A DNA stretch of 44,764 nucleotides, from NCBI GenBank assembly GCA_017403285.1, contig JAFQOI010000082.1:1-44764 (forward strand). The letters are read 5' to 3'. The notes beneath the pieces are model-generated. The model ran no database searches. It was not told the origin of the DNA and saw nothing but the letters and a program-made list of their open reading frames with translations. The position numbers and the translations under genes were made by a program. Source of the stretch: a bacterium. Its GTDB lineage: Bacteria; Cyanobacteriota; Vampirovibrionia; Gastranaerophilales; Gastranaerophilaceae. Positions 87 through 35,186 of the stretch are shown one piece after another (positions within the stretch are counted from its first letter, which is position 1; each line of letters starts with the position of its first letter).

Positions 87-170
87 GTATAAAGAATATA
101 CAAATTGCACGTAAGTATTTTAAGAAGTATAATAAAAAAATCTTTTACACCCCTTTTTAAGGAAATTAGT

Positions 171-1745
171 ATGTCATCTGACAAAAAGAGAAACAAAGTA
201 TTACTTATTGTTGCATACAGCGAAAGAAATTTGGGAATACGATTTATATCAAACAACCTATTAAAGAACGGTTTCGAGCCTACTATTGTATTTTTTAAGA
301 CATTTGAAACATTATACAATTCTCCCATTGTTACAGAAGAAGAACTTAACCTTCTAAAAGGACTAATAGAAAAAGAAAATTATTTATTTGTAGGTTTAAA
401 CTTACACTCATCTTCAATTATCCAATCAGTAGATAAAGTAATAAATCTTTTACAGAATGTGAATAATTTACCATTCATCATAGGAGGGGCATACCCTACA
501 GTAAATCCAAAATACTGCGCAACAAAAGCAGATATGGTTCTTCGAGGAGATGGGGAAAAAACGATTATAGAATTAGCAAAAGCACTTCAGGAAAATAAAG
601 ATTGGAGAAATATTCCAGGTGCTTGCTTTTTCAACGAAAAAGATGAATATGTCGAAATACAAACGGAAGATTTAGTTACAAATTTAGATTCAATTGCATA
701 TCCTGTTATAGGTTATGAAAAAATGTATCTAATAAATTACGATAGTATAACGCAAATAGATCCACAATTAACAACAGATTTTTATGAAACAAGTACATCA
801 AGAGGATGTCCATTTCATTGTTCATACTGTTGCAATGATGCTCTCTCTAACATATACAAAAAAGGGACTTTTCTACGTTATAGGAGCGTAGATAGTGTAA
901 TAAAGGAACTAACTGAAGCAATACAAAAAAACCCAAATATAAAAGAAATAAGATTTTGGGACGAGGTTTTTCCTTCAGATGAAAAATGGATTAAAGAATT
1001 TTCAAGTCGTTTCAAAAAAGAAATAGGATTGAAGTTCCATATTTTTGGACATCCATTGATGATAAAAGAAAACAATATAAAAACACTGGTAGATGCAGGG
1101 TTGTATGTTATAGCAGTAGGATTTCAATCTGGTTCACCTAATATTAGAAACAATATTTTTAATAGAGCAGAAACAAACGAACAAATTATAAACGCAAGTA
1201 AAATACTTTCAAAGTGTAAAGTACCGAAAGTTTATTATGATTTGATGATTGGACATGCATTAGAGAGTTTGGACGAAATAAAAGAAACATTTGAACTCTG
1301 CCTGCAATTAGAACATCCCTTTAAACTACAATTGCATGGATTGGGAATCTTACCTGGTGCAAAAATTATAAATACTCTAGTTAAAAATGGCATTTATACA
1401 AAAAATGAAATAAATAAAATAACAACATCATCATTTGAAGAACAAGATGCCTTCTTATTAGGTCCATATAAAAATAACTTTTGGGGAGACGAAAGAAAAA
1501 GTATATGGGCAAGTTTGATTTATCTGACTCAATTCCCAGAAATACGAGAAGAAGTTTTACATTTATCACTTAATCCATATAAAAATAAATCTAAAATCAA
1601 TAAATTAAAATGTGACAGAAAGCTTAATCATCCATATATAAAGAGAGTATTATTCTGCGACTATGAAAATTTGTATGACAGACCGATGAATATCGTAAAA
1701 AAGTTTACGAAATCTGTTTTTGATAAAATATTAAAAAAAGACTAA
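171..1745 (+). CDS. B12-binding-domain radical SAM protein (copy 1)
   Basis: This 524-residue protein has an N-terminal Rossmann-like cobalamin-binding-type domain (about residues 8-145, with the G-G-A-Y-P-T segment and the R-G-D-G-E segment typical of this class) followed by a radical SAM core with CPFHCSYC, a CX3CX2C cluster at Cys213, Cys217 and Cys220. The usual cobalamin DxHxxG signature is not recognisable, so cobalamin binding is uncertain. An upstream ATG at 105 is in frame, but 171 is preferred: AAGGA lies 7 bases before it, and the resulting N terminus aligns with the next gene. The family includes methyltransferases and other C-C or C-S bond-forming enzymes; the substrate is unknown. 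It is followed after 14 bases by a close paralogue, probably in one operon. Confidence 0.85.
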   Translation: MSSDKKRNKVLLIVAYSERNLGIRFISNNLLKNGFEPTIVFFKTFETLYNSPIVTEEELNLLKGLIEKENYLFVGLNLHSSSIIQSVDKVINLLQNVNNLPFIIGGAYPTVNPKYCATKADMVLRGDGEKTIIELAKALQENKDWRNIPGACFFNEKDEYVEIQTEDLVTNLDSIAYPVIGYEKMYLINYDSITQIDPQLTTDFYETSTSRGCPFHCSYCCNDALSNIYKKGTFLRYRSVDSVIKELTEAIQKNPNIKEIRFWDEVFPSDEKWIKEFSSRFKKEIGLKFHIFGHPLMIKENNIKTLVDAGLYVIAVGFQSGSPNIRNNIFNRAETNEQIINASKILSKCKVPKVYYDLMIGHALESLDEIKETFELCLQLEHPFKLQLHGLGILPGAKIINTLVKNGIYTKNEINKITTSSFEEQDAFLLGPYKNNFWGDERKSIWASLIYLTQFPEIREEVLHLSLNPYKNKSKINKLKCDRKLNHPYIKRVLFCDYENLYDRPMNIVKKFTKSVFDKILKKD

Positions 1746-1759
1746 AGGACATAAAAAAT

Positions 1760-3316
1760 ATGACTACAAAACGTAGCAATAAAATTCTTTTATTAGCCTT
1801 TTATTTAGAAAAGGCTCCAGGCATTAGGTATCTAGCAAATTACCTTTTAAAAAACGGATTTGAACCTACTATTTGTTTTGTAAAAACATCACCAACAAAT
1901 CCTTCATCCATTTCAAAAAAAGAAAAAGAACTATTAAAAGAACTTATAGAAAAAAACGATTTCTTGTTTATTGGTCTAAGTATACTTTCTTCGTACACAC
2001 TATCTGAAGTTATAAAAGTAAATAATATGATTCGTGAGCACTATAATATTCCAGTTGTTTGGGGTGGAGTATATCCATCTTTAATGCCAGAAGATTGCGC
2101 AAAATATTGCGATATTCTCATAAAAGGAGAAGGAGAACTAGCATTATTAGAATTGGCTAACACAATAAGAAATGGTCAAGATTGGAAAAATATACAAAAT
2201 GTGTGCTACTACGATGAAAATGGCAATTATCATGAAAATAAATTACGTCCTTTAGTTGAAAACCTAGATGAAATTGGATATCCTCTCATATCTGATAAAC
2301 ATATGTATCTTATAGAGGGGAATAAAATTTTTAATGAGGATCCACAACTGAATAGTAACTTCCCTCAAAACTGGGAAAGCTACGAACTAACAACTACGAG
2401 GGGGTGTCCTTTTGGTTGTTCTTATTGTTCATCATCAAAAATAAGAGAAATATACAAAGGAAACGGTAAATTCTTTCGTTTCAGAAGTGTTGATAACGTA
2501 ATAAAAGAATTGACGGAAGCAATAGAAAAGAATCCAAATATAAAAGAAATAAGATTTTGGGATGAAGTTTTTACCACAAACAAAGAATGGATCGAAGAAT
2601 TTTCAAAAAAATACAAAGAAAAAATTGGGCTCAGATTTGTAACTTGGGGACATCCATTACTTATAGAAAAAGAAACAATGGAAATGCTTGTCGATGCAGG
2701 TTTGAGAAGAATAATTGTAGGATTCCAATCTGGTTCTCCGCACGTTAGAAATGAAATTTTTAAACGTCCAGAATCAAACGAACAAATAATAGAAGCAAGC
2801 AAGATATTGAGTTCTTTTCCTGAATTAGAAGTTTATTATGATCTCATAATTTGCCATATTTTAGAAAACATTTCTGAATTAAAAGAAACTTTCGATTTAT
2901 GTATGAAGCTAAGTGCTCCATTTGGATTACAAATTCACGGACTTTCTTTTCTCCCCAAAACAGACATAATCCAAACAATGATAAATGATGGATTATATAC
3001 TGAAGACGAACTTAATAATATATTCAATGCACCTTTCGAAGAAAATTATAGACAATGGAATGGACCTCGTTCTGATTATTATGCTGATAACCCCGAAAAA
3101 GAAATGTGGGCAAATTTAATATATCTAACACAATATAAATCAATTAGAAAAAAATTGATAAATTTTATAAAAAGCCCTAAGAAAAATGAAAAAAGAATAA
3201 AAGAATTAAAACGAAAAATGGAAAATTTAACATACGAAGAACAAGAAAATGCAAAAAAAGGAAAAACTAACAATAATATAATAAAAAACATTAAATTGAT
3301 TTTTAAAATCAGATAA
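1760..3316 (+). CDS. B12-binding-domain radical SAM protein (copy 2)
   Basis: This 518-residue paralogue of the preceding gene has the same architecture: an N-terminal B12-binding-type domain (G-G-V-Y-P-S near residue 98, K-G-E-G-E near 120) and a radical SAM core with CPFGCSYC at Cys216, Cys220 and Cys223. A central block (N-P-N-I-K-E-I-R-F-W-D-E-V-F) is identical in both proteins, and 29 bases are identical at the DNA level (933-961 and 2534-2562). AAAGGA before the ATG is a good ribosome-binding site. The extreme C terminus is lysine-rich and not conserved between the copies, so the copies may differ in partner or substrate. No precursor peptide or sugar/lipid pathway gene sits next to them to reveal the substrate. 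Confidence 0.85.
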   Translation: MTTKRSNKILLLAFYLEKAPGIRYLANYLLKNGFEPTICFVKTSPTNPSSISKKEKELLKELIEKNDFLFIGLSILSSYTLSEVIKVNNMIREHYNIPVVWGGVYPSLMPEDCAKYCDILIKGEGELALLELANTIRNGQDWKNIQNVCYYDENGNYHENKLRPLVENLDEIGYPLISDKHMYLIEGNKIFNEDPQLNSNFPQNWESYELTTTRGCPFGCSYCSSSKIREIYKGNGKFFRFRSVDNVIKELTEAIEKNPNIKEIRFWDEVFTTNKEWIEEFSKKYKEKIGLRFVTWGHPLLIEKETMEMLVDAGLRRIIVGFQSGSPHVRNEIFKRPESNEQIIEASKILSSFPELEVYYDLIICHILENISELKETFDLCMKLSAPFGLQIHGLSFLPKTDIIQTMINDGLYTEDELNNIFNAPFEENYRQWNGPRSDYYADNPEKEMWANLIYLTQYKSIRKKLINFIKSPKKNEKRIKELKRKMENLTYEEQENAKKGKTNNNIIKNIKLIFKIR

Positions 3317-3320
3317 AAAA

Positions 3321-3345
3321 GAAGCAAAAGTATAACTTTTGCTTC
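3321..3345. terminator. Intrinsic terminator between convergent transcripts
   Basis: A perfect 10-bp stem, GAAGCAAAAG with CTTTTGCTTC, closes a TATAA loop. On the minus strand it is followed by TTTTTTATC, so it works best as the terminator of the 41-residue membrane peptide gene. On the plus strand it also follows directly after the second radical SAM gene, though its U-tract there is poor. Confidence 0.75.
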
Positions 3346-3350
3346 TTGCA

Positions 3351-3476
3351 TTATTGTTCTTTTGTTTCTACTTCGTCTTCATGTTTTTCTTGTGAAGTCA
3401 TTTCTTTTTTCTTAAGAAATTTTCCAACAACAAGTCCAATCATAAAAGTTGCACCCGTTAATAAAAATTTGTACAT
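3351..3476 (-). CDS. Small single-pass membrane protein, 41 residues
   Basis: The protein starts MYKFLLTGATFMIGLVVG, one hydrophobic segment (about residues 4-18), followed by a lysine cluster (KFLKKK) and a very polar, acidic tail ending in K-E-Q. The ATG has a near-consensus AAGGAGG (3484-3490) with 7 bases of spacing, and the frame ends just before a terminator, which argues strongly that it is expressed. By the positive-inside rule the basic tail probably faces the cytoplasm. The family is not recognised. YtxH-like small proteins have a similar layout (glycine-rich membrane segment followed by a charged helix), but this one is shorter. Confidence 0.75.
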   Translation of the reverse strand: MYKFLLTGATFMIGLVVGKFLKKKEMTSQEKHEDEVETKEQ

Positions 3477-3648
3477 TAATTTCCCTCCTTAAACACAAAT
3501 AAATTTAAAATATATTAGTAAGTTTTTCTATATTTATTTGTCTAAAATTTATGCTACTTATAATTTAAAGAAAATATAAATTAAAATTATAAAAAGTTAA
3601 TTTTAGAATTTTTATAAAGGTAAATTTATTGTTCATTTCTATTTTTTG

Positions 3649-5406
3649 TTACTCATCATTACCTGTAGCAAAAACATAACCATTTATGCCTTTCTTTTTA
3701 TCTTTTGAAACACCTTTTTTTAAATAAAATTCAATGTCTGATTTGTCTATTCCAAGTATAGAAGATGCCTGGTCAATATCTTTAAATTCACGTAAATTTC
3801 CATACGCATCGAGAGCATAAACAATTTTAGATCTAGGTCTTTTATCTTGATACTTAAATTCATATCCATTTGTGGTTTTTTGTGAGCCATTTAGACACTT
3901 AGTTATTTTAGAAGTATCAATACCAAGTGCTATAGCTGCTCTTTTTTTATTCTTAAATACTCTTTTCTTGCCATTTTTATCAATTGCAACAATAGGAAGC
4001 TGAACCAATTCTTCAGCCTGACGAGCAAATTTATTTATTAAATCTTGATTTCTTATAAGTTTGCCATCTTTTATAGAATCAATATATATCGCTCTAACAA
4101 GCGCTTTTTCATTAATACCTCTTATTACTCCATTAACGCAAAAAAGAACATCTCCTTGTGAAACATTAAGTGCATCAGCTGCTTTTTGTGCATTGTCATA
4201 TCTTACATATTTGCCGTCTGCATCAATAACATAGATAGCATTTTTTATAACTTGTTTAAATTTACCATCAATTTTTTTAGTATCTAACAATGTCTTACCA
4301 AGCCAATCTCCAACTTCTAGTTCTTCTGCTTTTATATAAGCAAATCCGCCAGCAGAATCTCTTTCACCTTTTAAACAAGCATCAATATTCCTTCTTGGAA
4401 CAGAAAGTTTTTTCGCCGCCTCCCCCATACTCATAAATTTAACAACTTTACCATTTTGCCCAATTGCATAAAGAGGAACTGGTGTTCTCTTCCCAAACAA
4501 ATCATCTGCCATTTCGAAGTTAACACTGATTTTACCTTGTTCATCAATATACTCAACTTCATCAGCATAAAAGAAAGCATAACCTGCTGTTGTACTTCTT
4601 TCTTTATTCAAACATTGATTAATATGAGTTGTATCAATTCCAAGCACATTTCCGGCTTCTGAGCGTTGTTCAAATTTAATGTATTTTCCTTCTTCATCAA
4701 CTGAATAAAATGGTCTAATTTTTGGTTGAGAATCAAATACCGCAGAAAGTTCTTTTACTTTTGCATTTAATTTCCATTTATTGATAGAAATTTTACCATT
4801 TGTCCCGACTCTTTCAAGATCATCTGCGTACATAAAGCCGACACCACAAGAGGTTTTTTGGTTACCTTTCAAGCATTTAACAATATTTGTCCCAGAACCA
4901 CCAAGAGCCCTAGCAGCAGCAGAAACACTCATATATTTTTGATAATTACCATCTCTATCTATAGAATAAATTGGTCTTTTATTTACTTCATTTGGGTCTT
5001 TTGCTTTTAGTTCTCTTATTGCAATAATTTTGTCATTCAGCTTTTTTTCATCAACGGTAACATTACCATTTTTATCAACAGTTTCAATTTCATCAGCAGA
5101 AACAAACATATAACCACCTGCAGTACATCTTTTTCCAGACAAACATGCACCAATACTTGCAGCATCTGCCCCAACTGTTCTGCCTGCTTCTTTTAAGCTT
5201 AAATGTTTATTGTAATTACCCTCATTGTCTATTGAGTACAAAGGTTTTCTTGCTGCACAGAATGATAAATTATATCCTCCTGTAATATGCATATAATTCA
5301 AAATATTTGCAGAACTTACATCTCCTGTTATATTATTTTTCGCAGAAGAATGTTTAGACCTATAATCTTTTGAAAAAAGATTAATATTCAATGGATGCAG
5401 TTTCAT
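3649..5406 (-). CDS. Tandem IENR1/NUMOD1-like repeat protein A (7 repeats)
   Basis: This 585-residue protein is a leader of about 52 residues plus seven repeats beginning near residues 54, 144, 231, 310, 389, 470 and 528. Each repeat reads roughly I-Y-x-I-D-x-x-G-x-Y-x-(K/R)-F, then S-x-x-E-A-A-x-x-L-G-I, four variable residues, I-x-x-C-L-x-G, and G-Y-x-F. That matches the intron-encoded nuclease repeat (IENR1/NUMOD1), a DNA-binding helix-turn-helix module of homing nucleases. No HNH, GIY-YIG or other catalytic domain is present. Linkers of 25-35 residues between repeats are acidic then basic. The start at 5406 (not the longer frame from 5496) is chosen because its first 51 residues align with the divergent paralogue; no clear Shine-Dalgarno is seen. 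Residues 35-50 carry the YNLSF motif shared with other proteins here. DNA binding is inferred, not shown. Confidence 0.8.
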   Translation of the reverse strand: MKLHPLNINLFSKDYRSKHSSAKNNITGDVSSANILNYMHITGGYNLSFCAARKPLYSIDNEGNYNKHLSLKEAGRTVGADAASIGACLSGKRCTAGGYMFVSADEIETVDKNGNVTVDEKKLNDKIIAIRELKAKDPNEVNKRPIYSIDRDGNYQKYMSVSAAARALGGSGTNIVKCLKGNQKTSCGVGFMYADDLERVGTNGKISINKWKLNAKVKELSAVFDSQPKIRPFYSVDEEGKYIKFEQRSEAGNVLGIDTTHINQCLNKERSTTAGYAFFYADEVEYIDEQGKISVNFEMADDLFGKRTPVPLYAIGQNGKVVKFMSMGEAAKKLSVPRRNIDACLKGERDSAGGFAYIKAEELEVGDWLGKTLLDTKKIDGKFKQVIKNAIYVIDADGKYVRYDNAQKAADALNVSQGDVLFCVNGVIRGINEKALVRAIYIDSIKDGKLIRNQDLINKFARQAEELVQLPIVAIDKNGKKRVFKNKKRAAIALGIDTSKITKCLNGSQKTTNGYEFKYQDKRPRSKIVYALDAYGNLREFKDIDQASSILGIDKSDIEFYLKKGVSKDKKKGINGYVFATGNDE

Positions 5407-5484
5407 ATTAATTGAAAAACAAAATATAAAAATTTTTGTTAAATTATTTCTGCAAAAAAAATTTTTAGAAGTTTTCATAAAAAT
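5407..5484. promoter_or_regulatory. Divergent intergenic control region of repeat genes A and B
   Basis: Only 78 bases separate the two divergent start codons, so the promoters must overlap here. The stretch is almost pure A/T. Each start codon lies inside a small inverted repeat: TTTCA-N7-TGAAA at 5401-5417 for gene A and TTTCATA-N4-TATGAAA at 5473-5490 for gene B. Part of each is dictated by the shared Met-Lys start, so they may be chance. No confident -35/-10 pair could be chosen. Confidence 0.4.
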
Positions 5485-7341
5485 ATGAAAGTGCATCCCT
5501 CTAATTTTTGTTGTTTAAACGATAATGAATATTCATCAGATAAAACAACAAAAAATCCTATAGTTTCACATAAAAATCCAAATATTGTTTTTAATTACTT
5601 AAGTGCAATTGGGAATTATAACATAACATTTTCTGCTGCAAAAAATCCATTTTATTCTATAGATGAGAATGGAAATTATATAAGATTTACTGACAGAAAA
5701 GTTGCAGAAGAAACTCTATCTTTAGCAAAGAGCAACATTGCTGAATGTCTTCAAGGAAAAAGGACAGCAACTCATGGATATAGTTTTTGCTATGCAAGTG
5801 AGATTGAAACAACAGATGAAACAGGTAACATAAAAATTGACGAAGAAAAATTAAATAAAAAGATAGAAGAAACAAAACTTGCACTTCAATCAAGGGATAT
5901 TCCTATTCCAATTTACGCAATAAGCCCAAATGGAACTTATAAAAAATTCCCTAGCAAATATCAAGCTGGTAAACAACTTGGAATTTCTGTTCCTCACTTA
6001 TTAAAATGCTTAAATGGAGAATTAAACAAAACAGGTGGATATACTTTTGTCTTTCCAGAAGAAATAGAAGAAAAAGATAAAGATGGAAATATTTTTGTAA
6101 GCAGAAGAAAAGTGGATGATATAGCAAGTACTTCATTTTTAAATACAAAAGCAACACCATTGTATGCAATTGATAAATATGGCAATCATAGAAGATTTGC
6201 AGGTATTAGAATTGCCGCAAGAGAATTATCATTAGAATGCGCTAATATTTCAAGATGCTTACAAGGTGGGCAAAAAAGAGTTGGAGAATATACGTTCGTA
6301 AGAGCGCAAGATGTAGAAAAAAAAGATAAGAACAACAGGTTAACTCTTGATACTGAAAAGATGGAAGAAATAAATCAAACATCATTAGAAATGAAAAATT
6401 ATGTCCCAGTATACACAATAAGATATGACGGCAAAATAACAAAACACGCAAACCAAAATAGGGCAGCAAGAGCAATTGGAGTAAAAGCAGACGCACTAAG
6501 ACACTGTCTGGGCGGCAGATATAGTGTTATAAACGGACACTCAGTTGCTTATGCAAAAGATATTGAAAAAATAAATGATGAAGGGAAAACAGAATTAAAT
6601 TTTGAATTGCTTGAAGAAAAATATAATGAAGCAAATAAAAATGCAATATATGCAATTTATCCAGATGGAACACATAAAAAATATGTGACACAAGCACAAG
6701 CAGCGGAAGAACTTGGAATAAGAAGAACAAAAATAGCACAGTGTTTAACTGGTGAAAGTAATATGACAGCAGGGAGAACTTTTGTTAAAGCAAGTGATGT
6801 TGAAACTTTTTCAAAAGGTCATATAATACTCAATCGCAATTTAATAAAGAAATTTTCAGTTAGTTTACTATCTACATCTAAACTTCGTGCAATATATGCA
6901 TTTGATGAAAAAGGAAATTATGTAAGATATGGAAGCATAAAACAGGCAACAGATGGCTTATCAATTGGAAAAACAAATATTGCACTTTGCTTAAATGGAC
7001 AACAAAAATCAAGCAAAGGTTATCATTTTATATATGCTTCAGATGTTGAACAATATGACGAAAATGGAATATTAATTATAGATTATGACAAAATTGATGA
7101 AATAAGAGAAGAAATAAATCCTGCAATAAGAAAACGAAATAAAAAATATGGCAAAATATATGCCTTGTCAGGTGTAAATATAAAAGAATTTGAAAATATT
7201 TCAATTGCAGCAAGAGAATTGAATATAGACGCAAATGATATTGAACATTTATTGAAAACAGGAAGAAACAGAAATAATGGAGCATCTTCAATTAATGGCT
7301 ATGTATTTACATGTGAAAATGACGAAAAAGAAACAAAATAA
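5485..7341 (+). CDS. Tandem IENR1/NUMOD1-like repeat protein B (7 repeats)
   Basis: This 618-residue paralogue of the divergent gene has the same layout: a leader whose residues 36-50 end in NYNITFSAA, then seven IENR1-like repeats (first repeat from about residue 54, e.g. F-Y-S-I-D-E-N-G-N-Y, ending C-L-Q-G-K-R-T-A-T-H-G-Y-S-F). The final repeat ends in GYVFTCENDE, matching the C termini of both paralogues. Repeats match position by position between the proteins (repeat 5 begins N-A-I-Y in A and B), so the gene duplicated as a whole. The four residues before I-x-x-C-L differ in every repeat (AKSN, SVPH, ECAN, KADA, RRTK, GKTN, DAND). No enzyme domain, signal peptide or membrane segment is seen. 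Probably a cytoplasmic modular nucleic-acid-binding protein. Confidence 0.8.
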   Translation: MKVHPSNFCCLNDNEYSSDKTTKNPIVSHKNPNIVFNYLSAIGNYNITFSAAKNPFYSIDENGNYIRFTDRKVAEETLSLAKSNIAECLQGKRTATHGYSFCYASEIETTDETGNIKIDEEKLNKKIEETKLALQSRDIPIPIYAISPNGTYKKFPSKYQAGKQLGISVPHLLKCLNGELNKTGGYTFVFPEEIEEKDKDGNIFVSRRKVDDIASTSFLNTKATPLYAIDKYGNHRRFAGIRIAARELSLECANISRCLQGGQKRVGEYTFVRAQDVEKKDKNNRLTLDTEKMEEINQTSLEMKNYVPVYTIRYDGKITKHANQNRAARAIGVKADALRHCLGGRYSVINGHSVAYAKDIEKINDEGKTELNFELLEEKYNEANKNAIYAIYPDGTHKKYVTQAQAAEELGIRRTKIAQCLTGESNMTAGRTFVKASDVETFSKGHIILNRNLIKKFSVSLLSTSKLRAIYAFDEKGNYVRYGSIKQATDGLSIGKTNIALCLNGQQKSSKGYHFIYASDVEQYDENGILIIDYDKIDEIREEINPAIRKRNKKYGKIYALSGVNIKEFENISIAARELNIDANDIEHLLKTGRNRNNGASSINGYVFTCENDEKETK

Positions 7342-7467
7342 GAATTTTTGTAAAAAATAAGTTAATTCGGCAATAAAAAAAAGATAAAAGATAATTTATA
7401 AATAAATTTAAAGTTACTTTTTATTAAAAGAGCAACAATTTTTTTTAGGAGTGTTGAAATAAACAAG

Positions 7468-8004
7468 ATGAGAGTTAACACGCCAAAATTCAATCAATAT
7501 CTAGCGAATTCGTTAGAAAAGTTCTCTAATAATGGTGGAGAAAAAGTTTCTAACTACGTTAATGCTGCTGGAAAAATGGTTATAGCACCACTAGTAATAA
7601 TGCATAACCCATTTACGCATGAGGACAAAGATAATAGAAAATGGGCTGCAATAAAACAACCAGTTGAAGCAGTAATAACAATTGGAATGCAATTGGCAAG
7701 CCTAGCATTTCTATTCAAAGGAATAGACTCATTGATAAAAAAAGGGAAAATCAATTTCAAATTCGTAGAAGAAGCCACAAAAGATGCAAGTAAAATACCT
7801 ACAAAAATACTAGAAGCTTGTGGAAACGACAAAGAAAAAGCCGTAAAAATGTATAGAGAACAGTTTAATGAAATATTCAAAGATAGAGTAGGTGCTGTTC
7901 TATCTGCCTTGATTTATGTACCAGTCCTTGCAGTATCAAATAAAATTTACCCAAAAATAGCAAAAAAGTTGGTTAACAAAGATGAAAATAAATCCACTAA
8001 ATAA
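7468..8004 (+). CDS. Unknown protein with two hydrophobic segments (first of a pair)
   Basis: This 178-residue protein has hydrophobic stretches at about residues 65-85 and 141-157, separated by a charged segment of about 50 residues. A conserved-looking block (H-N-P-F-T-H-E-D-K, then R-K-W-A-A-I-K-Q-P) precedes the first one. I recognise the style as a family of unknown function from Gastranaerophilales-like genomes, but no function is known to me. AGGAG lies about 15 bases before the ATG, a long spacing. It opens a same-strand cluster: its end overlaps the next gene by 23 bases, and that gene is followed closely by two more, the last a metallophosphatase. The hydrophobic segments may be membrane helices or a buried helical hairpin. 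Confidence 0.65.
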   Translation: MRVNTPKFNQYLANSLEKFSNNGGEKVSNYVNAAGKMVIAPLVIMHNPFTHEDKDNRKWAAIKQPVEAVITIGMQLASLAFLFKGIDSLIKKGKINFKFVEEATKDASKIPTKILEACGNDKEKAVKMYREQFNEIFKDRVGAVLSALIYVPVLAVSNKIYPKIAKKLVNKDENKSTK

Positions 8005-8529: not shown

Positions 8530-8967
8530 ATGATAAAGTTCCCTTTTATTAATATATGTAATACGCCACAGACAAATAACAAATATGGAGAAAGACATCC
8601 TCATCAGGCACAAAAACATCATATTTCTTTTGAAAGAAATATCGATATATTTGAAAAAGAAGATATTGCACAAGAAACCGCTAGAGATTTTAGAAAAAGA
8701 GTTATTTTGGCATTTAGTGACTGGTATGAGCCCGTACCTGACGAAGGACATAAAGATAATATTCAATTAAAAAAATTGTTATCACCATATATTGATGCTA
8801 TTGAACACATGAACCAACATGATGCGGAATGTTTTGCAAGACTAGCATTAGGAGAAGAACAAATAAAAGAAATCGAAGAAGGTTCACTCATAAATCCAGA
8901 CCTAAAACATTTTAAAGATGCGCTAGAAAATAAAATGGGAAAACCTTTAAACAAATTAATAAAATAG
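8530..8967 (+). CDS. Unknown 145-residue protein
   Basis: The N terminus (to about residue 40) is polar and contains HHISFERNIDIF, a form of the recurrent I-S-F motif found near the start of several proteins in this window. The rest looks like a small helical domain: a central D-W-Y-E-P segment, then H-M-N-Q-H-D-A-E-C-F-A-R and a lysine-rich end. GGAG at 8518-8521 sits 8 bases before the ATG, and only 2 bases separate it from the gene upstream, so it belongs to the same operon. No family was recognised; no signal peptide or membrane segment. Confidence 0.6.
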   Translation: MIKFPFINICNTPQTNNKYGERHPHQAQKHHISFERNIDIFEKEDIAQETARDFRKRVILAFSDWYEPVPDEGHKDNIQLKKLLSPYIDAIEHMNQHDAECFARLALGEEQIKEIEEGSLINPDLKHFKDALENKMGKPLNKLIK

Positions 8968-9016: not shown

Positions 9017-10717
9017 ATGAAAATAATGTCTGCACAAAGTGGTATGAATAATGTTAATTTTAGAGCAGCGCAAGTAAATATACTTGCAACATCAGATAAT
9101 CACGGAAATGTTCATTCTCTTCCTAAATTTGTAAAAACAATAGAATCTAATGAAGCGGAAATTTTCCAAAAAGGAAAAGAGCCAAGCACGCTTAATATTT
9201 TCGCGATAGCAGGTGATTGGTTTATTAACCCATCAAAAAAAGGTTTTATAACAAAAGAAAAAATGAAAAACGGAGATATACAACTTCGATTTTTGAAAAA
9301 AACTATTGACTGTGTAAACAAGCTACTAGGAAAAGAAAGTAATTTTGACACTGTCTTTACAATGGGAAACCATGACCTAGATGGTGGAGACCGATTTATT
9401 TATAAGGCAATAACTGTTGCGCCAATGAAGACATTGGTAACTAATGTTGATTTGGAAAAATCACCTGTAATTAACGGAATGATGCAAAAAGTTAATCCAA
9501 ATGTAGCAAAATCTATAGTATATGAAATTCCTGATGATAAGAATCCTGATCTAAAACACAAAGTTTTATTTGTTGGAGCAACAATTCCCACAATGGGATT
9601 CTATAACCCTGGTCTTCTTGAAAAAATGAGTTTTTATGATGATGGAAATGTAAAAGACTCAAACTTAAACGAAGAAGACATACAAGGAACAATTAATGCA
9701 GTAAAAGAAGAAGTCGAAAAATTCAAAAAAGAGAATCCAAAAGGTGCAGTTATTTTACTATCACACATGGGCGCAAGACTATCACAAATGATTAGAGATA
9801 ACGTTCCGCAAATAAACGTAATTTTAAATGGCCACGACCATAAATACTTAACATCATTGAGAGGGAAAACGAACATAAACTCTCTAGGACAAGACAATGA
9901 AATGATTAAATCACTAAACCTACGTTTCAATGATGATGGTGATTTAGAAACAACAGACATGAATATGTTCTTTACAGGATTAACTCTTGTTGATGACATA
10001 GAAAATCATCCACTACAACTATTCTTAAACGAAAACTTTGCAAGAGACAGGGAACCACTAGTTTCTGTAAAAGATTTAGGAGGAAAAGAAGTAGAACTCG
10101 ACTACGGAACAGAGATAAGATACTCTAATAGCCATCTTGCAAACTATTTAACAAGTGCCATAAAACGTAGTGTAAGAAATAGCAATCCTGATGTTTTCGC
10201 TGTTGCTATTCAATCATCTATTATTAGAGGCGGAATAAAAGATGGTTCATCTAATCTTGATTTAATGAAAGTATTTGATGGTGTAAGTGAAGACCTATCA
10301 AATCTTCAGATTGGTGAGGTAAAAGGTAAAGAACTTGTTGGATTAATCACAGAAAACATCCTAGCAAACTTAGATGCACCAACAAGAAACACTATTATTC
10401 ACTGGTCAGATATACAAATTGATAGAACATTAATGTCAAAAATAAGAAGTGGTGAATCTAAAAAGCAATATAAAGATGCAATTAAGGTAAGAAACAATAT
10501 AACAAAGAAATTTGAACCTATTAACTTATCAGCGGGCTATAAGATAGTTCTTCCTGAAAAATACTTAGTTAAAGACGATATTAAATGGCCTGGAAAAATA
10601 AGAGATAGATTTGTATCATTAAACCAAACATATGATGAACTATTCAAACAATACTTATATGAAATAGACCATCAAATCAAAGTTACGCCAAAAACAAAAG
10701 AACAAAGAATATTATAA
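9017..10717 (+). CDS. UshA/5'-nucleotidase-like metallophosphatase without a signal peptide
   Basis: This 566-residue protein is a two-domain 5'-nucleotidase-family enzyme. The N-terminal calcineurin-like metallophosphatase domain shows the metal ligands in order: D27 and H29 (SDNHG), D67 (AGDWF), N118-H119-D120 (MGNHDLDGG), H250 (LLSHMG) and H273/H275 (NGHDH). The C-terminal 5'-nucleotidase domain spans about 345-530, including R-G-G-I-K-D-G and a nucleotide-binding-type region. Family members hydrolyse nucleotides, UDP-sugars or cyclic phosphates, normally in the periplasm. Here no Sec signal peptide is visible; the N terminus instead carries NNVNFRAA (11-18), the recurrent F-motif. GGAG lies 8 bases before the ATG. 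The gene closes a four-gene cluster. Substrate not predictable. Confidence 0.85.
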   Translation: MKIMSAQSGMNNVNFRAAQVNILATSDNHGNVHSLPKFVKTIESNEAEIFQKGKEPSTLNIFAIAGDWFINPSKKGFITKEKMKNGDIQLRFLKKTIDCVNKLLGKESNFDTVFTMGNHDLDGGDRFIYKAITVAPMKTLVTNVDLEKSPVINGMMQKVNPNVAKSIVYEIPDDKNPDLKHKVLFVGATIPTMGFYNPGLLEKMSFYDDGNVKDSNLNEEDIQGTINAVKEEVEKFKKENPKGAVILLSHMGARLSQMIRDNVPQINVILNGHDHKYLTSLRGKTNINSLGQDNEMIKSLNLRFNDDGDLETTDMNMFFTGLTLVDDIENHPLQLFLNENFARDREPLVSVKDLGGKEVELDYGTEIRYSNSHLANYLTSAIKRSVRNSNPDVFAVAIQSSIIRGGIKDGSSNLDLMKVFDGVSEDLSNLQIGEVKGKELVGLITENILANLDAPTRNTIIHWSDIQIDRTLMSKIRSGESKKQYKDAIKVRNNITKKFEPINLSAGYKIVLPEKYLVKDDIKWPGKIRDRFVSLNQTYDELFKQYLYEIDHQIKVTPKTKEQRIL

Positions 10718-10774: not shown

Positions 10775-11329
10775 TTATTCTTTTACAAATTTTGCACCTA
10801 CATATTGAAAATGTTTAAATTGGTTTTTCTTGCCATAAACTGGATCAAAGAATACACGTAGAGTTAAATCATCTTTTTCTGGTGATTTAAGTCTTCTACA
10901 CGTATTTTTAATAAATCTTTGAACATTTCTGTAAAACTCATGTCCTGTTTGGTAAACTTCAAAAGAATGAGCGTGACCAAATTCATCTATAGAATCAGAT
11001 TTTGCTCTACCAATTGGCTTCGCCATTTCTCTAACTGTATCAACATCGCGACCTGTAACCATGTATACAATAGGATGTTCATGGTCATAGACAGAATGAA
11101 CTTGAGGCAATGAAGCATAATCCTTATCATACTGTTTATACCATTTAACAAATTCTTCATTTTTATTATTTTTTGCTGTTCCATTTAAATTACGAACAAC
11201 AAAACCTTGACATCTTTTTATATTTTCCATTTTTTGTACTGGACCATATTTCCCATTTGCAGGATTTTTCGCATAAAATTGTACAGGCACATAACCTTTA
11301 AAAGATGGGGATTGAACACTTGATATCAT
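10775..11329 (-). CDS. Unknown 184-residue protein with N-terminal SPSFKGY motif
   Basis: The protein begins MISSVQSPSFKGYVPVQF, the clearest example here of the short N-terminal motif. The body has a conserved-looking region with H-S-V-Y-D-H-E-H-P-I-V-Y-M-V-T-G-R-D, then a helix E-M-A-K-P-I-G-R-A-K, and ends with a positively charged F-K-H-F-Q-Y-V-G-A-K-F segment. I know no function for this family; it looks like a lineage-restricted soluble protein. GAGGTGAAAT directly before the ATG is a good Shine-Dalgarno. It is convergent with the metallophosphatase gene and shares the terminator at 10726-10750. Confidence 0.65.
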   Translation of the reverse strand: MISSVQSPSFKGYVPVQFYAKNPANGKYGPVQKMENIKRCQGFVVRNLNGTAKNNKNEEFVKWYKQYDKDYASLPQVHSVYDHEHPIVYMVTGRDVDTVREMAKPIGRAKSDSIDEFGHAHSFEVYQTGHEFYRNVQRFIKNTCRRLKSPEKDDLTLRVFFDPVYGKKNQFKHFQYVGAKFVKE

Positions 11330-11409: not shown

Positions 11410-12162
11410 TTATTTCTCGCAAGATTTAAAGCTCGCAAAAAGTTCATCTTTTTGTTTTATTCCGTAGCCCCATAAAGTTTGTCGTTTCATATTAGGATAC
11501 TCAATAACTTTTTGCATGCCAGAAGATGCAATATCAATACTATTTTTATAGACATACTCAATTGGTCTACCCTCTTCTATATATTTTTTTGCATCAACAG
11601 GACTATATCCTTGAACTAAATTTTGAGGAAGTTCAAATTTATAATTAAAAACTCCACCTTTTTCCGCATAAACTTGATGTAAATTTCTAAAATGGTCACT
11701 AGCAATAAAAGGAAGAACTTCATCTTGTACTCTTATAACAAAATCTAAAGGATTAAGATTCTTAGTAGATATTCTTATAAGAACCAACCCTTGTTCTCCT
11801 TTTAAGGCCTGTTCTGTAAGTTCAGCCGCCAAAGATTGTGATTTTCTCATATTTGGAGTTTTTCTCCAATTATTCTGAAAATCATCCATATCAAAAAAGA
11901 AAACACCATCTATAATATCCTTAGATGGATTAATGACACCAGTTCTAATTATTTTTTTATAGTTTTCTTTATTAGTTAAATGATATAAATATTCAGGTAA
12001 AGCAGATTTAATTGCTTCTTTATCAGAAATATTTGAAGATAGATTTGCCTGTTTAACAAAAACATCTAAATCTTCCGTCTGTCTGAACGACGGAGAAAAA
12101 TTACGAACAAAAAAAGGCTTGCTAAAATATGGACTATTTAACTCAATCTTAGAAATATTCAT
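11410..12162 (-). CDS. Possible ADP-ribosyltransferase-like protein (YHLT motif)
   Basis: After a leader of about 30 residues containing NFSPSFRQ (the recurrent motif), this 250-residue protein has the segment YLYHLTNKENYKKIIRTGVI (about residues 58-77) and then G-V-F-F-F-D. The pattern Y-H-x-T followed by a helix, I-x-x-x-G-(L/V)-I, and a hydrophobic V-(F/Y)-x-(F/T) strand occurs in the ADP-ribosyltransferase-like superfamily, where the first His binds NAD (DarT, Tpt1 and effector families). A later catalytic Glu could not be assigned with confidence. The assignment is based on motif only and is tentative; it could be an inactive relative. AGGGGG lies about 12 bases before the start. No signal peptide. 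Confidence 0.55.
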   Translation of the reverse strand: MNISKIELNSPYFSKPFFVRNFSPSFRQTEDLDVFVKQANLSSNISDKEAIKSALPEYLYHLTNKENYKKIIRTGVINPSKDIIDGVFFFDMDDFQNNWRKTPNMRKSQSLAAELTEQALKGEQGLVLIRISTKNLNPLDFVIRVQDEVLPFIASDHFRNLHQVYAEKGGVFNYKFELPQNLVQGYSPVDAKKYIEEGRPIEYVYKNSIDIASSGMQKVIEYPNMKRQTLWGYGIKQKDELFASFKSCEK

Positions 12163-12266: not shown

Positions 12267-14276
12267 TTATATTTGACGTTCATTTACTGTTATTAAGCCA
12301 TTATTGATGTAATCATCAACGATACTAGCATCAATTTTTTCTGCTCTAGGAACAACCATTACTTCTCCAGCAATATCGTATTTTTGTTCGATAAGTTTTT
12401 TCTGATCAGGAGTTGAAGCAATAAGTCCAGTTTGAGTATTAATTGAATCTAAAACATGCTTTCTTTCAAAGTCTTCTAATTCAAAGCAGTTGCTAGCAAT
12501 TTCCATTGTTGTATGATAAAGGTTATTTAAAGAACCGCAATCTGCCCATGGTTCAGATGTTGGAACAGCAACAACTTTTTGATTACCCAAAACTTCTTTT
12601 GCATCGTAAACAGCAGTTAATGGAATTTGGTCTCCTGTTGCTCCAACTACAGCAGAAATTGCATCTCTAATTTCAACTATATTATCCTTTTGTGATAAAG
12701 CCATAATAATTGGTACATATGTTTTAGACCAATCCCTAGGTTCTTTACCCTCACCAGCAGGGAAGAATTCTTCTAAAATTGCTAAAGCATTAAATGCTTC
12801 TTTTGAAACAGAGAATTGGAATGTATTCGTTAAACATTTTCCATTTTTTTCGTATCCAGCAGGAATTTCCAATGGTTTTTCAGCGAATTCAAGAATTTCA
12901 TTATTTTCACCAAGTCTCATTATACCAAAGTTACCTTTTGCGGCTTCAGAATCAACTTCTTTTGCAATCATAACAATTGCAGCATTACCAGAATTCATAA
13001 TATCTGCCATTGTTTTTGAAGCATTTGTCAATCTAGACATTGAGTCATTAGGGAATAGTGTTAAACTATTTCTTCCTTCTCTTTCCATTTTATTGTACAA
13101 ATCAACAGTAAAGCCACCATTACCTTTATTTACGCCTGATTGATTTAAATAAAATTTAATGTTACCACCAATTTTTAATTTACCTTTTGAACAATCTAGT
13201 AAACCAGCGTTATGTAAAGAAATAAAAGTAGTTTCCATTGGCGTTAAACCAGTAGCAGTTCTAAATACACCCTTTGTAGATTGAGCTCCATCTTCTACAC
13301 CATGGAAAATACCATCAGACGAAGCATTTGTATATTCTGCTCTTGAACCAAATCCACCAGCAAGCATTGCTAATTGTGTATTTTTAGCATTTGGATTAGC
13401 AACAAATTGATCAAGAACAATATCACCTTTATTTACTTTTTTAGCAAATTCTTCAATACTAGCAATGATTTCAGGAACAAAACGTCCTTCTTCCATACCT
13501 ATTACAATTTCAGTACCATCACCAATTGAAGGCATTTGAACTCTTTCTTTTACATTTTGAGCAGATGTTGTGAATGGAATAAAATGATTATTGGCTTGTT
13601 CTGTTCTAACATTTAATCTATTTTTTGTTCCAGTTCCTTTTTTTGTAATTTGTCCAGCGTTAGTTAAAAGAACGTTTTTTCCATCTTCAACAACTGCCAT
13701 TAAATTACCTTTTGTATTTAATACATATGTATTTTCGTCAAGAGAGGGGTCTTGTGTTATTTGTATTAATTGTTTTAAATCTTTTGTTCTATCTGCGACA
13801 GTACCAATTGGTCTTGGTTGTCTAACTGCCATTTCATATAAAATACCATTTTCTGTTCTCTTTAATTGAGTTCTTGAATCAACAAAAGTGCCTTTTTTAT
13901 CATCTTGAGAAACTAAAACATTTGTTTTAATAGCATCTTCATTTTGAGGTAAATCATCATGATATTTATTAACCAATCCAGAAACAGAAACTCTTGAACC
14001 TACATTTTCACCTTTTTTACCTTTTGATAAATCCTGACAAGTAACCATTGATTTATTTAATTCATTAAATGCTTCAGACAAACCTTGTCCAAAACTAATG
14101 GTTTTAGCAGTATTAATACCATAAAAAGCCTGATAAGCATTTACTAAACTTGTTGCAGTATAATTACCAGCAAAAGAAGGTGCTGTTGCCATATTTTTTG
14201 AAGCAGTTTGCATAGGTTTTGCTTGGATTTTTTGTGGTTGAATAAAGATTGAACCACTGTTTAATTTTTGAATCAT
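12267..14276 (-). CDS. Large nucleotidyltransferase-fold protein with lineage-specific N-terminal half
   Basis: This 669-residue protein has two parts. Residues 305-312 (LAGGFGSR) match the nucleotide-binding signature of GT-A-fold sugar-1-phosphate nucleotidyltransferases (GlgC/RfbA/GlmU type), and FPNDSMSR (408-415) and F-G-I-M-R-L-G-E-N followed by E-F-A-E-K-P fit later motifs of that fold. The N-terminal ~300 residues are not recognised; they hold two copies of the recurrent motif (PSFAGNY at 33-39 and ISFGQG at 60-65). The family usually has 290-430 residues, so this is a long variant or fusion. The usual activating lysine and metal-binding aspartate positions were not confirmed, so activity is uncertain. 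CGGAGGG before the ATG is a strong Shine-Dalgarno. Monocistronic, with its own terminator. Confidence 0.65.
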   Translation of the reverse strand: MIQKLNSGSIFIQPQKIQAKPMQTASKNMATAPSFAGNYTATSLVNAYQAFYGINTAKTISFGQGLSEAFNELNKSMVTCQDLSKGKKGENVGSRVSVSGLVNKYHDDLPQNEDAIKTNVLVSQDDKKGTFVDSRTQLKRTENGILYEMAVRQPRPIGTVADRTKDLKQLIQITQDPSLDENTYVLNTKGNLMAVVEDGKNVLLTNAGQITKKGTGTKNRLNVRTEQANNHFIPFTTSAQNVKERVQMPSIGDGTEIVIGMEEGRFVPEIIASIEEFAKKVNKGDIVLDQFVANPNAKNTQLAMLAGGFGSRAEYTNASSDGIFHGVEDGAQSTKGVFRTATGLTPMETTFISLHNAGLLDCSKGKLKIGGNIKFYLNQSGVNKGNGGFTVDLYNKMEREGRNSLTLFPNDSMSRLTNASKTMADIMNSGNAAIVMIAKEVDSEAAKGNFGIMRLGENNEILEFAEKPLEIPAGYEKNGKCLTNTFQFSVSKEAFNALAILEEFFPAGEGKEPRDWSKTYVPIIMALSQKDNIVEIRDAISAVVGATGDQIPLTAVYDAKEVLGNQKVVAVPTSEPWADCGSLNNLYHTTMEIASNCFELEDFERKHVLDSINTQTGLIASTPDQKKLIEQKYDIAGEVMVVPRAEKIDASIVDDYINNGLITVNERQI

Positions 14277-33131: not shown

Positions 33132-33158
33132 TTTATAAGGTTTATAAAAAATATGAAA
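33132..33158 (+). promoter_or_regulatory. Start-region element shared by repeat genes B and C
   Basis: The 27 bases around the start of gene C (33132-33158) match those around gene B (5464-5490) at 22 positions, including TTTA-N-AAG, TTT and A-run-TATGAAA. Only six of these bases code for protein, so the upstream part may be a conserved regulatory or ribosome-recruiting element, or a relic of duplication. Confidence 0.35.
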
Positions 33159-35186
33159 ATTTCTGGCATCACAAACTACTATTTGCCCAAAACAGATACA
33201 AAAAAAAACACATCATTACAAATACAAAATAATGACGTACAAAGTAATGCTGTTTTTGAATACCTTAGTGCAATTGGAAACTACAATATAACTTTTGGCG
33301 ATACGAAGATAGCAATTTATAAAATAGAAAAAGATGGAACATATGAAAAATTTTCTGGAGTAAATGACGCTGCACGAAAATTAAATATTGATGCATCTAA
33401 AATTTCAAATAGTCTAAAAGGAGGAAATCCTAGAACACTTGATTGTACATTTATGAAAGCAAGTGAAATAGAAATTTCTTCCCAAGATGGCAAAACAATT
33501 TTAGATAAAGAAAAAATAGATGCAAAGTTTAAAGAATTGGAAGAAAAAACACCAAATAAAAATAAAAGAAAAGCAATATATCAAGTTTTCAAAAATGGAA
33601 GTTACAGAAAATTTGATAGCCTTGTAACCGCAGGAAAAGAACTAGGAATGACAGAATCTAAAATATCAAACTGTCTAAAAGGAGCAAATGCTAAAACCCT
33701 AGATTTTACTTTTATGCTGGCAAGTGACATTGAAACAATAAACGAAGATGGAGACATCATCATTGACGAAAATGTTGTAGCGACAAGGCTAAAGGAACTT
33801 GAAGAAAAAGACCCTTATAGATCAAAAAAGAAATCAATATATAGAATAGATAAAAATGGGAACTATAAAAGATATAATAGCCTTTCTGAGGCATCACAAG
33901 AATTAGGAATAGAAGATTCAAATATATCAGACTGTCTATATGGGAAACAAAAAAGTAGCGGTGGCTACACTTTTGTACTTGCAAGTGATGTTGAGAGAAT
34001 AGACAATAATGGAAATTTAAAAATTCAGAAAAAGAAAATTAAAAAGATTGCAGAAGAACTAAAAAACCACCTTTCTTCACATTTTATCTTAAAACCATTT
34101 TATGCAGTTGATAAAGATGGGAATTATACTAGATTTGAAAGCCATACAGAGGCTTGCCACGCTCTCAACTTAGACAACCCTGATATAAGAAAATGTCTTG
34201 AGGGTAATCGCTTCACGACAAATGGGTATGCCTTTATTTATGCGGATAGAGTTGAAGAAACTGACGAAAATGGCAATACCATTGTGAAAATCAATTTTCC
34301 ACAAGAAATTTTTGAACATAGAAATCCTATACAAATATATTCAATTAATAGCAAAGCGGAAGTTAAAAAATTTCCAAGCATTAATGATGCGGCTAACTAT
34401 TATGAAATATCAAAAAGGCACATTCACTCTTGTCTAGATGGTAAAAAAGAAACTACCGCAGGAATGGCTTTTATAAGAGCAGATGAATTTGAGATTAAAA
34501 CAGCAGATAAAAAGAAGGGGCTTAATGAAGAAAAATTCAATAAATTATTCCAGCAAATAATAAAAAATGCCGTTTATGTTGTAGATAGAAATGGTAATTA
34601 TAAAAGATACAATTCAAATGCAGAAGCAGCAAAAGATTATGATGTAACCCCAGAACAAATCAAAGGTTGCTCAATGAACCATATAAAGGGGCTAAAGAGT
34701 GGACACAGTGTTGTAAAAGCTCGTTTGGTAGAATCTATAAAAGACGGTAAAATAGTTATAAACAAAGAGATTATTGACGAATATGCGAAAAAGGCCGAAC
34801 AAGTAAGAGACCGAGCGATTTGGGCAAAAGATGCAGAGGGTAAAAAAAGAAAATTTAAAAGCGTTGAAAATGCTTCAACAGAACTAGGCATTCCTGTAAA
34901 AGCAATCAACAGATGTCTTTCTGGAAAGAGTCAAACTACAAGAGATTACCATTTTGAATATGTAAAAGAATCCCCATCTATACCTATAGAAAGGAAAAAG
35001 AGAGATAAAACCATTTTTGCGATGGATTGCGAGGGTAATATAAAAACATTTGCAGATATTGATACTGCAGCAAGAGTTCTTGATGTTGAAAAGGAAGATA
35101 TCCAACAATTATTAAAAATTGGTTCTTTAAAAGGGAAAAGAACCTCATTAAAAGGATATGTTTTCTCTACAGCAAATGACGAATAG
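33153..35186 (+). CDS. Tandem IENR1/NUMOD1-like repeat protein C (8 repeats)
   Basis: This 677-residue protein is the third paralogue of the genes at 3.6-7.3 kb, about 26 kb away. The leader ends EYLSAIGNYNITFG (36-49) and eight IENR1-like repeats follow. Repeats 1 and 2 are most alike (both K-I-S-N-(S/C)-L-K-G and T-L-D-(C/F)-T-F-M), indicating a local duplication that makes eight from seven. Later repeats align one-to-one with those of protein A; for example repeat 6 here and repeat 5 of A both start N-A-(V/I)-Y-V and end S-I-K-D-G-K. The last repeat ends G-Y-V-F-S-T-A-N-D-E. No catalytic domain is seen. It is convergent with cstA, one base apart. The DNA-binding role is inferred from the repeat family. 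Confidence 0.8.
   Translation: MKISGITNYYLPKTDTKKNTSLQIQNNDVQSNAVFEYLSAIGNYNITFGDTKIAIYKIEKDGTYEKFSGVNDAARKLNIDASKISNSLKGGNPRTLDCTFMKASEIEISSQDGKTILDKEKIDAKFKELEEKTPNKNKRKAIYQVFKNGSYRKFDSLVTAGKELGMTESKISNCLKGANAKTLDFTFMLASDIETINEDGDIIIDENVVATRLKELEEKDPYRSKKKSIYRIDKNGNYKRYNSLSEASQELGIEDSNISDCLYGKQKSSGGYTFVLASDVERIDNNGNLKIQKKKIKKIAEELKNHLSSHFILKPFYAVDKDGNYTRFESHTEACHALNLDNPDIRKCLEGNRFTTNGYAFIYADRVEETDENGNTIVKINFPQEIFEHRNPIQIYSINSKAEVKKFPSINDAANYYEISKRHIHSCLDGKKETTAGMAFIRADEFEIKTADKKKGLNEEKFNKLFQQIIKNAVYVVDRNGNYKRYNSNAEAAKDYDVTPEQIKGCSMNHIKGLKSGHSVVKARLVESIKDGKIVINKEIIDEYAKKAEQVRDRAIWAKDAEGKKRKFKSVENASTELGIPVKAINRCLSGKSQTTRDYHFEYVKESPSIPIERKKRDKTIFAMDCEGNIKTFADIDTAARVLDVEKEDIQQLLKIGSLKGKRTSLKGYVFSTANDE

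What the first reader, a model, noticed from the sequence alone, without database searches (positions are those of the whole stretch)
3649..7341. Divergent pair of nuclease-free tandem IENR1/NUMOD1 repeat proteins
Both proteins consist of seven copies of a helix-turn-helix module normally found singly or in short runs beside homing nuclease domains. Here seven copies make up nearly the whole protein and no HNH, GIY-YIG or other enzyme domain exists. They are divergent, share a 78-base control region, and use almost the same leader length. Long arrays of small DNA-binding modules recall programmable DNA-recognition proteins (TALE-like), but this is inference from repeat structure; an architectural, regulatory or anti-phage role is equally open.
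Basis: partly seen in the sequence, partly recalled or inferred. Interest (0 to 1): 0.85.

Follow-up and report, generated by a model that had tools for sequence, protein, structure and literature searches.

The report
Nuclease-free arrays of DNA-binding modules
Gut bacteria of the order Gastranaerophilales carry chromosomal genes whose proteins are little else than six to nine copies of a DNA-binding module otherwise known from selfish DNA-cutting enzymes, kept by selection with the cutting part gone, so they may be a natural DNA-reading repeat family unrelated to TALEs.

Summary
The two divergent genes (3649-5406 -, 5485-7341 +; 78 bp apart) each encode a 53-residue leader plus seven NUMOD/IENR1-type modules (Pfam PF22083, E 2.6e-62 and 4.7e-56) and no nuclease domain. 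A two-module unit folds confidently (pLDDT 93) into the helix-turn-helix of the homing endonuclease I-HmuI (Z 9.8, 0.9 A); the other good matches include two more DNA-binding domains. Relatives with 3-9 modules occur in 11 of 41 genomes of the genus and in two further genera of one bacterial family. No array was found elsewhere among 386 genomes of the phylum, in plasmids or in phages. The genes are chromosomal, partly syntenic, under purifying selection (Ka/Ks 0.14-0.36) and old: 60 of 64 modules resemble a module in another protein more than any in their own. This is a new variant of a known kind: homing-endonuclease DNA-binding modules turned into stand-alone array proteins. DNA binding is well supported by homology and fold; sequence-specific, TALE-like reading is possible but not shown. 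An N-terminal leader, also seen on unrelated proteins, hints at common sorting of unknown destination.

The parts
3649..5406 (-). array gene A, 585 aa: 53-aa leader + 7 modules
   Evidence: Pfam PF22083 x7, E 2.6e-62; aligned start
5485..7341 (+). array gene B, 618 aa: 53-aa leader + 7 modules
   Evidence: Pfam PF22083 x7, E 4.7e-56
5407..5484 (.). 78-bp AT-rich spacer between the two start codons; presumed divergent promoters
   Evidence: sequence; promoter-like hits in 3300-7600 no more frequent than in shuffles
5248..5406 (-). leader of A ending ...GGYNLSF-CAAR
5485..5643 (+). leader of B ending ...YLSAIGNYNITF-SAAK
33153..33308 (+). leader of C ending ...YLSAIGNYNITF-GDTK
5104..5247 (-). 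A module 1
4834..4977 (-). A module 2
4573..4716 (-). A module 3
4336..4479 (-). A module 4
4099..4242 (-). A module 5
3856..3999 (-). A module 6
3670..3828 (-). A module 7 (divergent terminal module)
5644..5787 (+). B module 1
5905..6048 (+). B module 2
6154..6297 (+). B module 3
6403..6546 (+). B module 4
6640..6783 (+). B module 5
6886..7029 (+). B module 6
7153..7308 (+). B module 7 (divergent terminal module)
33309..33452 (+). C module 1
33570..33713 (+). C module 2
33831..33974 (+). C module 3
34092..34235 (+). C module 4
34329..34472 (+). C module 5
34566..34700 (+). C module 6
34812..34955 (+). C module 7
35007..35165 (+). C module 8 (divergent terminal module)

Best explanation
A bacterial family of stand-alone DNA-binding array proteins. 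Each ~80-residue unit is a 48-residue beta-beta-HTH-beta module of the I-HmuI/NUMOD1 type followed by a beta-beta-alpha spacer; typically six to nine units lie like beads along the protein behind a flexible leader. The most likely action is that the modules dock one after another on double-stranded DNA, each through its own recognition helix, so that one protein occupies a long composite site without cutting it and acts as a regulator or architectural protein of the cell's own chromosome. Shown here: module identity, absence of a nuclease, predicted fold, chromosomal setting, age and selection. Inferred: DNA binding, sequence specificity, site length, regulatory role.
For: Seven to eight significant modules per protein, no enzyme domain. 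Two-unit AlphaFold model pLDDT 92.9; matches I-HmuI HTH Z 9.8 at 0.9 A, sCTP-23166 Z 7.4, AcrVA3 Z 6.1, I-TevI DNA-binding domain Z 5.7; sequence profile to 1u3e at E 4.8e-9. The DNA-binding sCTP family binds double-stranded DNA (PMC12176269), and I-HmuI, I-TevI and relatives use such loosely tethered modules to contact sites of up to 30 bp (PMC3943268). Basic proteins, pI 8.7-9.6, positive charge mainly on modules. Exposed recognition-helix positions (28-31, 33, 34) are among the most variable across 136 modules (entropy 3.3-3.8 bits). Purifying selection, positional orthology of modules, syntenic chromosomal loci, host-like G+C.
Against: No binding data. Fold similarity does not prove binding. 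The full-length model has low inter-module confidence (pTM 0.38), so no DNA-compatible superhelix is predicted with confidence. Some modules carry zero or negative net charge. Recognition-helix residues are not specially conserved between distant orthologues.
Confidence: 0.5

Rival explanations
1. Exported, TALE-like effectors: the leader is a sorting signal and the arrays act on DNA of another cell (gut eukaryote or neighbouring bacterium).
For: Nearly all arrays carry a leader ending in a xSFx-like motif. Unrelated proteins of the same bacteria carry similar leaders: strict motif in residues 3-70 versus 105-172, 23/643 versus 7/517 (p 0.013) in random stretches, 12/238 versus 1/182 (p 0.006) beside arrays, 4/147 versus 3/114 (p 0.64) outside the family. 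Carriers include a metallophosphoesterase distantly like exported nucleotidases and a weak ART-toxin match. TALEs also combine an N-terminal secretion signal with a repeat array (PMC11261895).
Against: Other leader carriers look like cytosolic enzymes (4-alpha-glucanotransferase, GAPDH-like). Looser leader definitions gave no enrichment. No secretion system or nuclear-localisation signal was tested.
Confidence: 0.15
2. Domesticated homing-endonuclease DNA-binding parts that shield chromosomal or phage target sites from homing nucleases or mobile elements (immunity by occupancy).
For: The module is the DNA-binding part of such nucleases; an ordinary phage-type nuclease with one module lies in this genome (C36, L024).
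Against: Ordinary homing nucleases with this module are rare in the phylum; no defence genes among the neighbours scanned.
Confidence: 0.12
3. Modules repurposed for binding something other than double-stranded DNA (RNA, protein or a repetitive polymer).
For: Shared fold does not fix the ligand; AcrVA3, an anti-CRISPR protein, has a similar fold.
Against: Three of the four good structural matches are DNA-binding domains; basic pI.
Confidence: 0.15
4. Decaying remnants of mobile elements without function.
For: Patchy occurrence (11/41 genomes); some copies look broken or split (G031; G210).
Against: Full-length open frames, Ka/Ks 0.14-0.36, positional orthology, conserved neighbourhoods, leader kept.
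Confidence: 0.05

Closest known systems
Homing endonuclease NUMOD/IENR1 modules (I-HmuI, PDB 1u3e; Pfam PF22083, PF07453)
   Same: Same module by profile, sequence and fold.
   Different: There one or a few modules serve an HNH or GIY-YIG nuclease in a mobile element; here six to nine form the protein, without nuclease, in the chromosome.
Paulinella chromatophore-targeted DNA-binding sCTPs (PDB 8b6e)
   Same: Same fold class (Z 7.4), nuclease-free, expanded family, binds double-stranded DNA.
   Different: Single-domain proteins under 90 residues of a eukaryote, imported into an organelle; no array.
TALE / RipTAL / Btl / MOrTL repeat proteins
   Same: Modular array in which repeats differ at exposed positions; N-terminal leader (PMC11261895).
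   Different: 33-35-residue repeats, near identical except for two residues; here 48 + ~35-residue HTH units about 30-50% identical to one another, with no defined code.
NUMOD1-rich proteins of giant viruses (e.g. Pithovirus LCPAC406 'NUMOD1 domain protein')
   Same: Foldseek matches over the two-unit model, some in long proteins.
   Different: Mostly annotated as HNH endonucleases; their module number and nuclease content could not be read here.

Membership tests
NUMOD / IENR1 DNA-binding module family (PF22083, PF07453) | Profile match above curated cut-off | tested here: met
   206.6 and 186.6 bits versus cut-off 27; NUMOD1 52.4 and 33.4 versus 22.8
NUMOD / IENR1 DNA-binding module family (PF22083, PF07453) | I-HmuI-type HTH fold | tested here: met
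   Predicted model: Z 9.8, 0.9 A over 53 residues
NUMOD / IENR1 DNA-binding module family (PF22083, PF07453) | Binds DNA | not testable with these tools
   needs EMSA or SELEX
Homing endonuclease | Nuclease catalytic domain (HNH, GIY-YIG, LAGLIDADG, EDxHD) | tested here: not met
   No such Pfam family at E <= 1; NCBIfam intron endonuclease match limited to the non-catalytic part
Homing endonuclease | Carried in intron, intein or mobile element | tested here: not met
   Stand-alone chromosomal genes between housekeeping genes, syntenic in related species; no Rfam intron in the window
TALE family | 33-35-residue repeats with a two-residue specificity code | tested here: not met
   ~80-residue units, 48-residue HTH module, many variable positions
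TALE family | Each repeat reads DNA in a modular code | tested here: inconclusive
   Recognition positions vary between modules, but orthologue conservation is weak evidence only
TALE family | Secretion into a host cell | not testable with these tools
   Leader is shared with unrelated proteins; destination unknown

The most novel reading that the evidence does not exclude
A second, independent natural family of modular sequence-reading DNA-binding arrays, evolved from homing-endonuclease HTH modules in gut relatives of cyanobacteria, in which each module reads its own short DNA segment and which may be exported by a lineage-specific leader to act on another cell's DNA.
Probability: 0.2. Interest if true: 0.9.

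Novelty: new variant of a known kind. Interest (0 to 1): 0.62.

Why it matters
Nuclease-associated DNA-binding modules are known as helpers of selfish nucleases. Here they form whole proteins, fixed and selected in bacterial chromosomes, in up to four copies per genome. If each module reads its own piece of DNA, this is a new natural scaffold for DNA recognition unrelated to TALEs and zinc fingers, and a test case of how selfish-element parts become cellular DNA-binding proteins. The shared leader makes an unstudied protein-sorting question in Gastranaerophilales testable.

Tried and rejected
Viral scans with the full-array alignment found no relative and with a two-module unit one short 30% match; an alignment of two-module units had no stretch conserved enough to scan with. 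Phages gave only weak matches (24-31% identity, 14-40% of the query), mostly annotated as homing nucleases; plasmids nothing. A single-protein scan of named genomes found nothing. Looser leader motifs were not enriched; only the strict motif was. Recognition-helix conservation was significant in 2 of 7 comparisons only. Synteny around the CstA gene next to array C could not be compared: the fetched loci were too short and the flanking genes were not found in them. Promoter-like sites were at chance level; no Rfam element other than tRNAs. A published TALE-inspired repeat screen allowed at most 5 differences between adjacent repeats and so would not have seen these arrays (PMC5472282). The Paulinella sCTP primary paper was not held.

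Full report
Observation. The window holds two divergent genes, A (3649-5406, -) and B (5485-7341, +), separated by 78 bp. Pfam finds seven PF22083 (I-HmuI NUMOD-like) modules in each, E 2.6e-62 and 4.7e-56, plus NUMOD1, and no enzyme domain at E <= 1. NCBIfam's intron endonuclease model matches only beyond its catalytic part. A third array, C (33153-35186, +, eight modules), lies in the same window and a fourth, D (six modules), on another contig of the genome. An ordinary GIY-YIG-like phage nuclease with one module lies on a phage-like contig, C36 (nuclease type read from sequence).

Architecture. Each unit is a 48-residue module and a spacer of usually 31-42 residues. AlphaFold of B with A and C gives pLDDT 77 and pTM 0.38: confident modules, undefined mutual arrangement. 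A two-unit fragment folds at pLDDT 92.9: strand-strand-HTH-strand, then strand-strand-helix. It matches the I-HmuI HTH at Z 9.8 and 0.9 A, the Paulinella DNA-binding sCTP-23166 at Z 7.4, AcrVA3 at Z 6.1 and the I-TevI DNA-binding domain at Z 5.7; a sequence profile finds 1u3e at E 4.8e-9. Proteins are basic, pI 8.7-9.6.

Distribution. Named records of three same-genus genomes are Candidatus Gastranaerophilales MAGs. Array matches occur in 11 of 41 genomes of the genus, one of them marginal at E 9e-4, and in two more genera of the same family. In 386 genomes across the phylum the only other match was a single-module, phage-type gene. PF22083 itself appears outside the family only once in 292 genomes, as a single module in a short frame, and in none of 14 control genomes. 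Phages hold only weak matches, mostly homing nucleases, plasmids none. Module number mostly varies from three to nine; some other hits hold one or two modules.

Evolution. Array loci are chromosomal and partly syntenic: D and the G031 array share kdsA, dapA and asd neighbours, and four species share one locus with a common block of neighbours; G244 and G008 arrays both sit beside a NifS/NifU-like pair, and G244 and array C lie near an AsmA-like gene (gene names from sequence reading, not from a profile search). Ka/Ks between orthologues is 0.14-0.36. Of 64 modules, 60 resemble a module of another protein more than any in their own, mostly in corresponding positions, so the arrays are old and not products of recent tandem duplication. 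G+C matches the surroundings.

Do the modules read DNA? Across 136 modules the exposed recognition-helix positions 28-31, 33 and 34 are among the most variable. Within one protein they share 9-14% identity, yet close orthologues keep 86-94%. Compared with equally variable columns the excess is p 0.03 and 0.04 in two close pairs, but absent in the five more distant comparisons. This fits module-specific reading whose targets drift, and also plain surface drift; it is not proof of a code.

Leader. A to D and most relatives begin with a flexible leader ending in a block like F-YLNAIGNYNITF or another xSFx motif. Similar leaders occur on unrelated proteins of the family, weakly but significantly enriched at N-termini by a strict motif, not by a loose one. 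Carriers range from unknown proteins to phosphatase-like, glucanotransferase and GAPDH-like enzymes, so the leader cannot be called a secretion signal; it is a lead.

Conclusion. Best reading: selfish-nuclease DNA-binding modules turned into stand-alone, chromosomal DNA-binding arrays. Module identity, lack of nuclease, predicted fold, age and selection are shown; binding, specificity and role are inferred. TALE membership fails on repeat type; a TALE-like mode of action stays open.

Noticed in passing
window 8530-8967, 9017-10717, 10775-11329 (-), 11410-12162 (-), 12267-14276 (-): Cluster of unrelated genes beside the arrays whose proteins start with a short leader ending in xSFx/xNFx (HHISFER, NVNFRAA, SPSFKG, SPSFRQ, APSFAG), including a metallophosphoesterase without an obvious Sec signal.
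   Followed up: partly
L051:3255-4496 (-), L061:11744-13603 (-): GAPDH-like and 4-alpha-glucanotransferase proteins of related species also begin with a leader-like MKV/MKI...SFxx segment.
   Followed up: partly
L024:720-1532 (G000:C36): Ordinary GIY-YIG-like homing nuclease with one module, beside phage tail-like and integrase-like genes, in the same genome.
   Followed up: partly
L052:6887-8778 (-), L221:1025-2461 (-): Array genes that look split or interrupted (G031, G210), suggesting turnover of the family.
   Followed up: no
window 3319-3347: Perfect 13-bp inverted repeat downstream of the radical SAM gene, likely an intrinsic terminator.
   Followed up: no
window 105-3316: Two tandem B12-binding radical SAM genes of unassigned function next to the array pair.
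   Followed up: no
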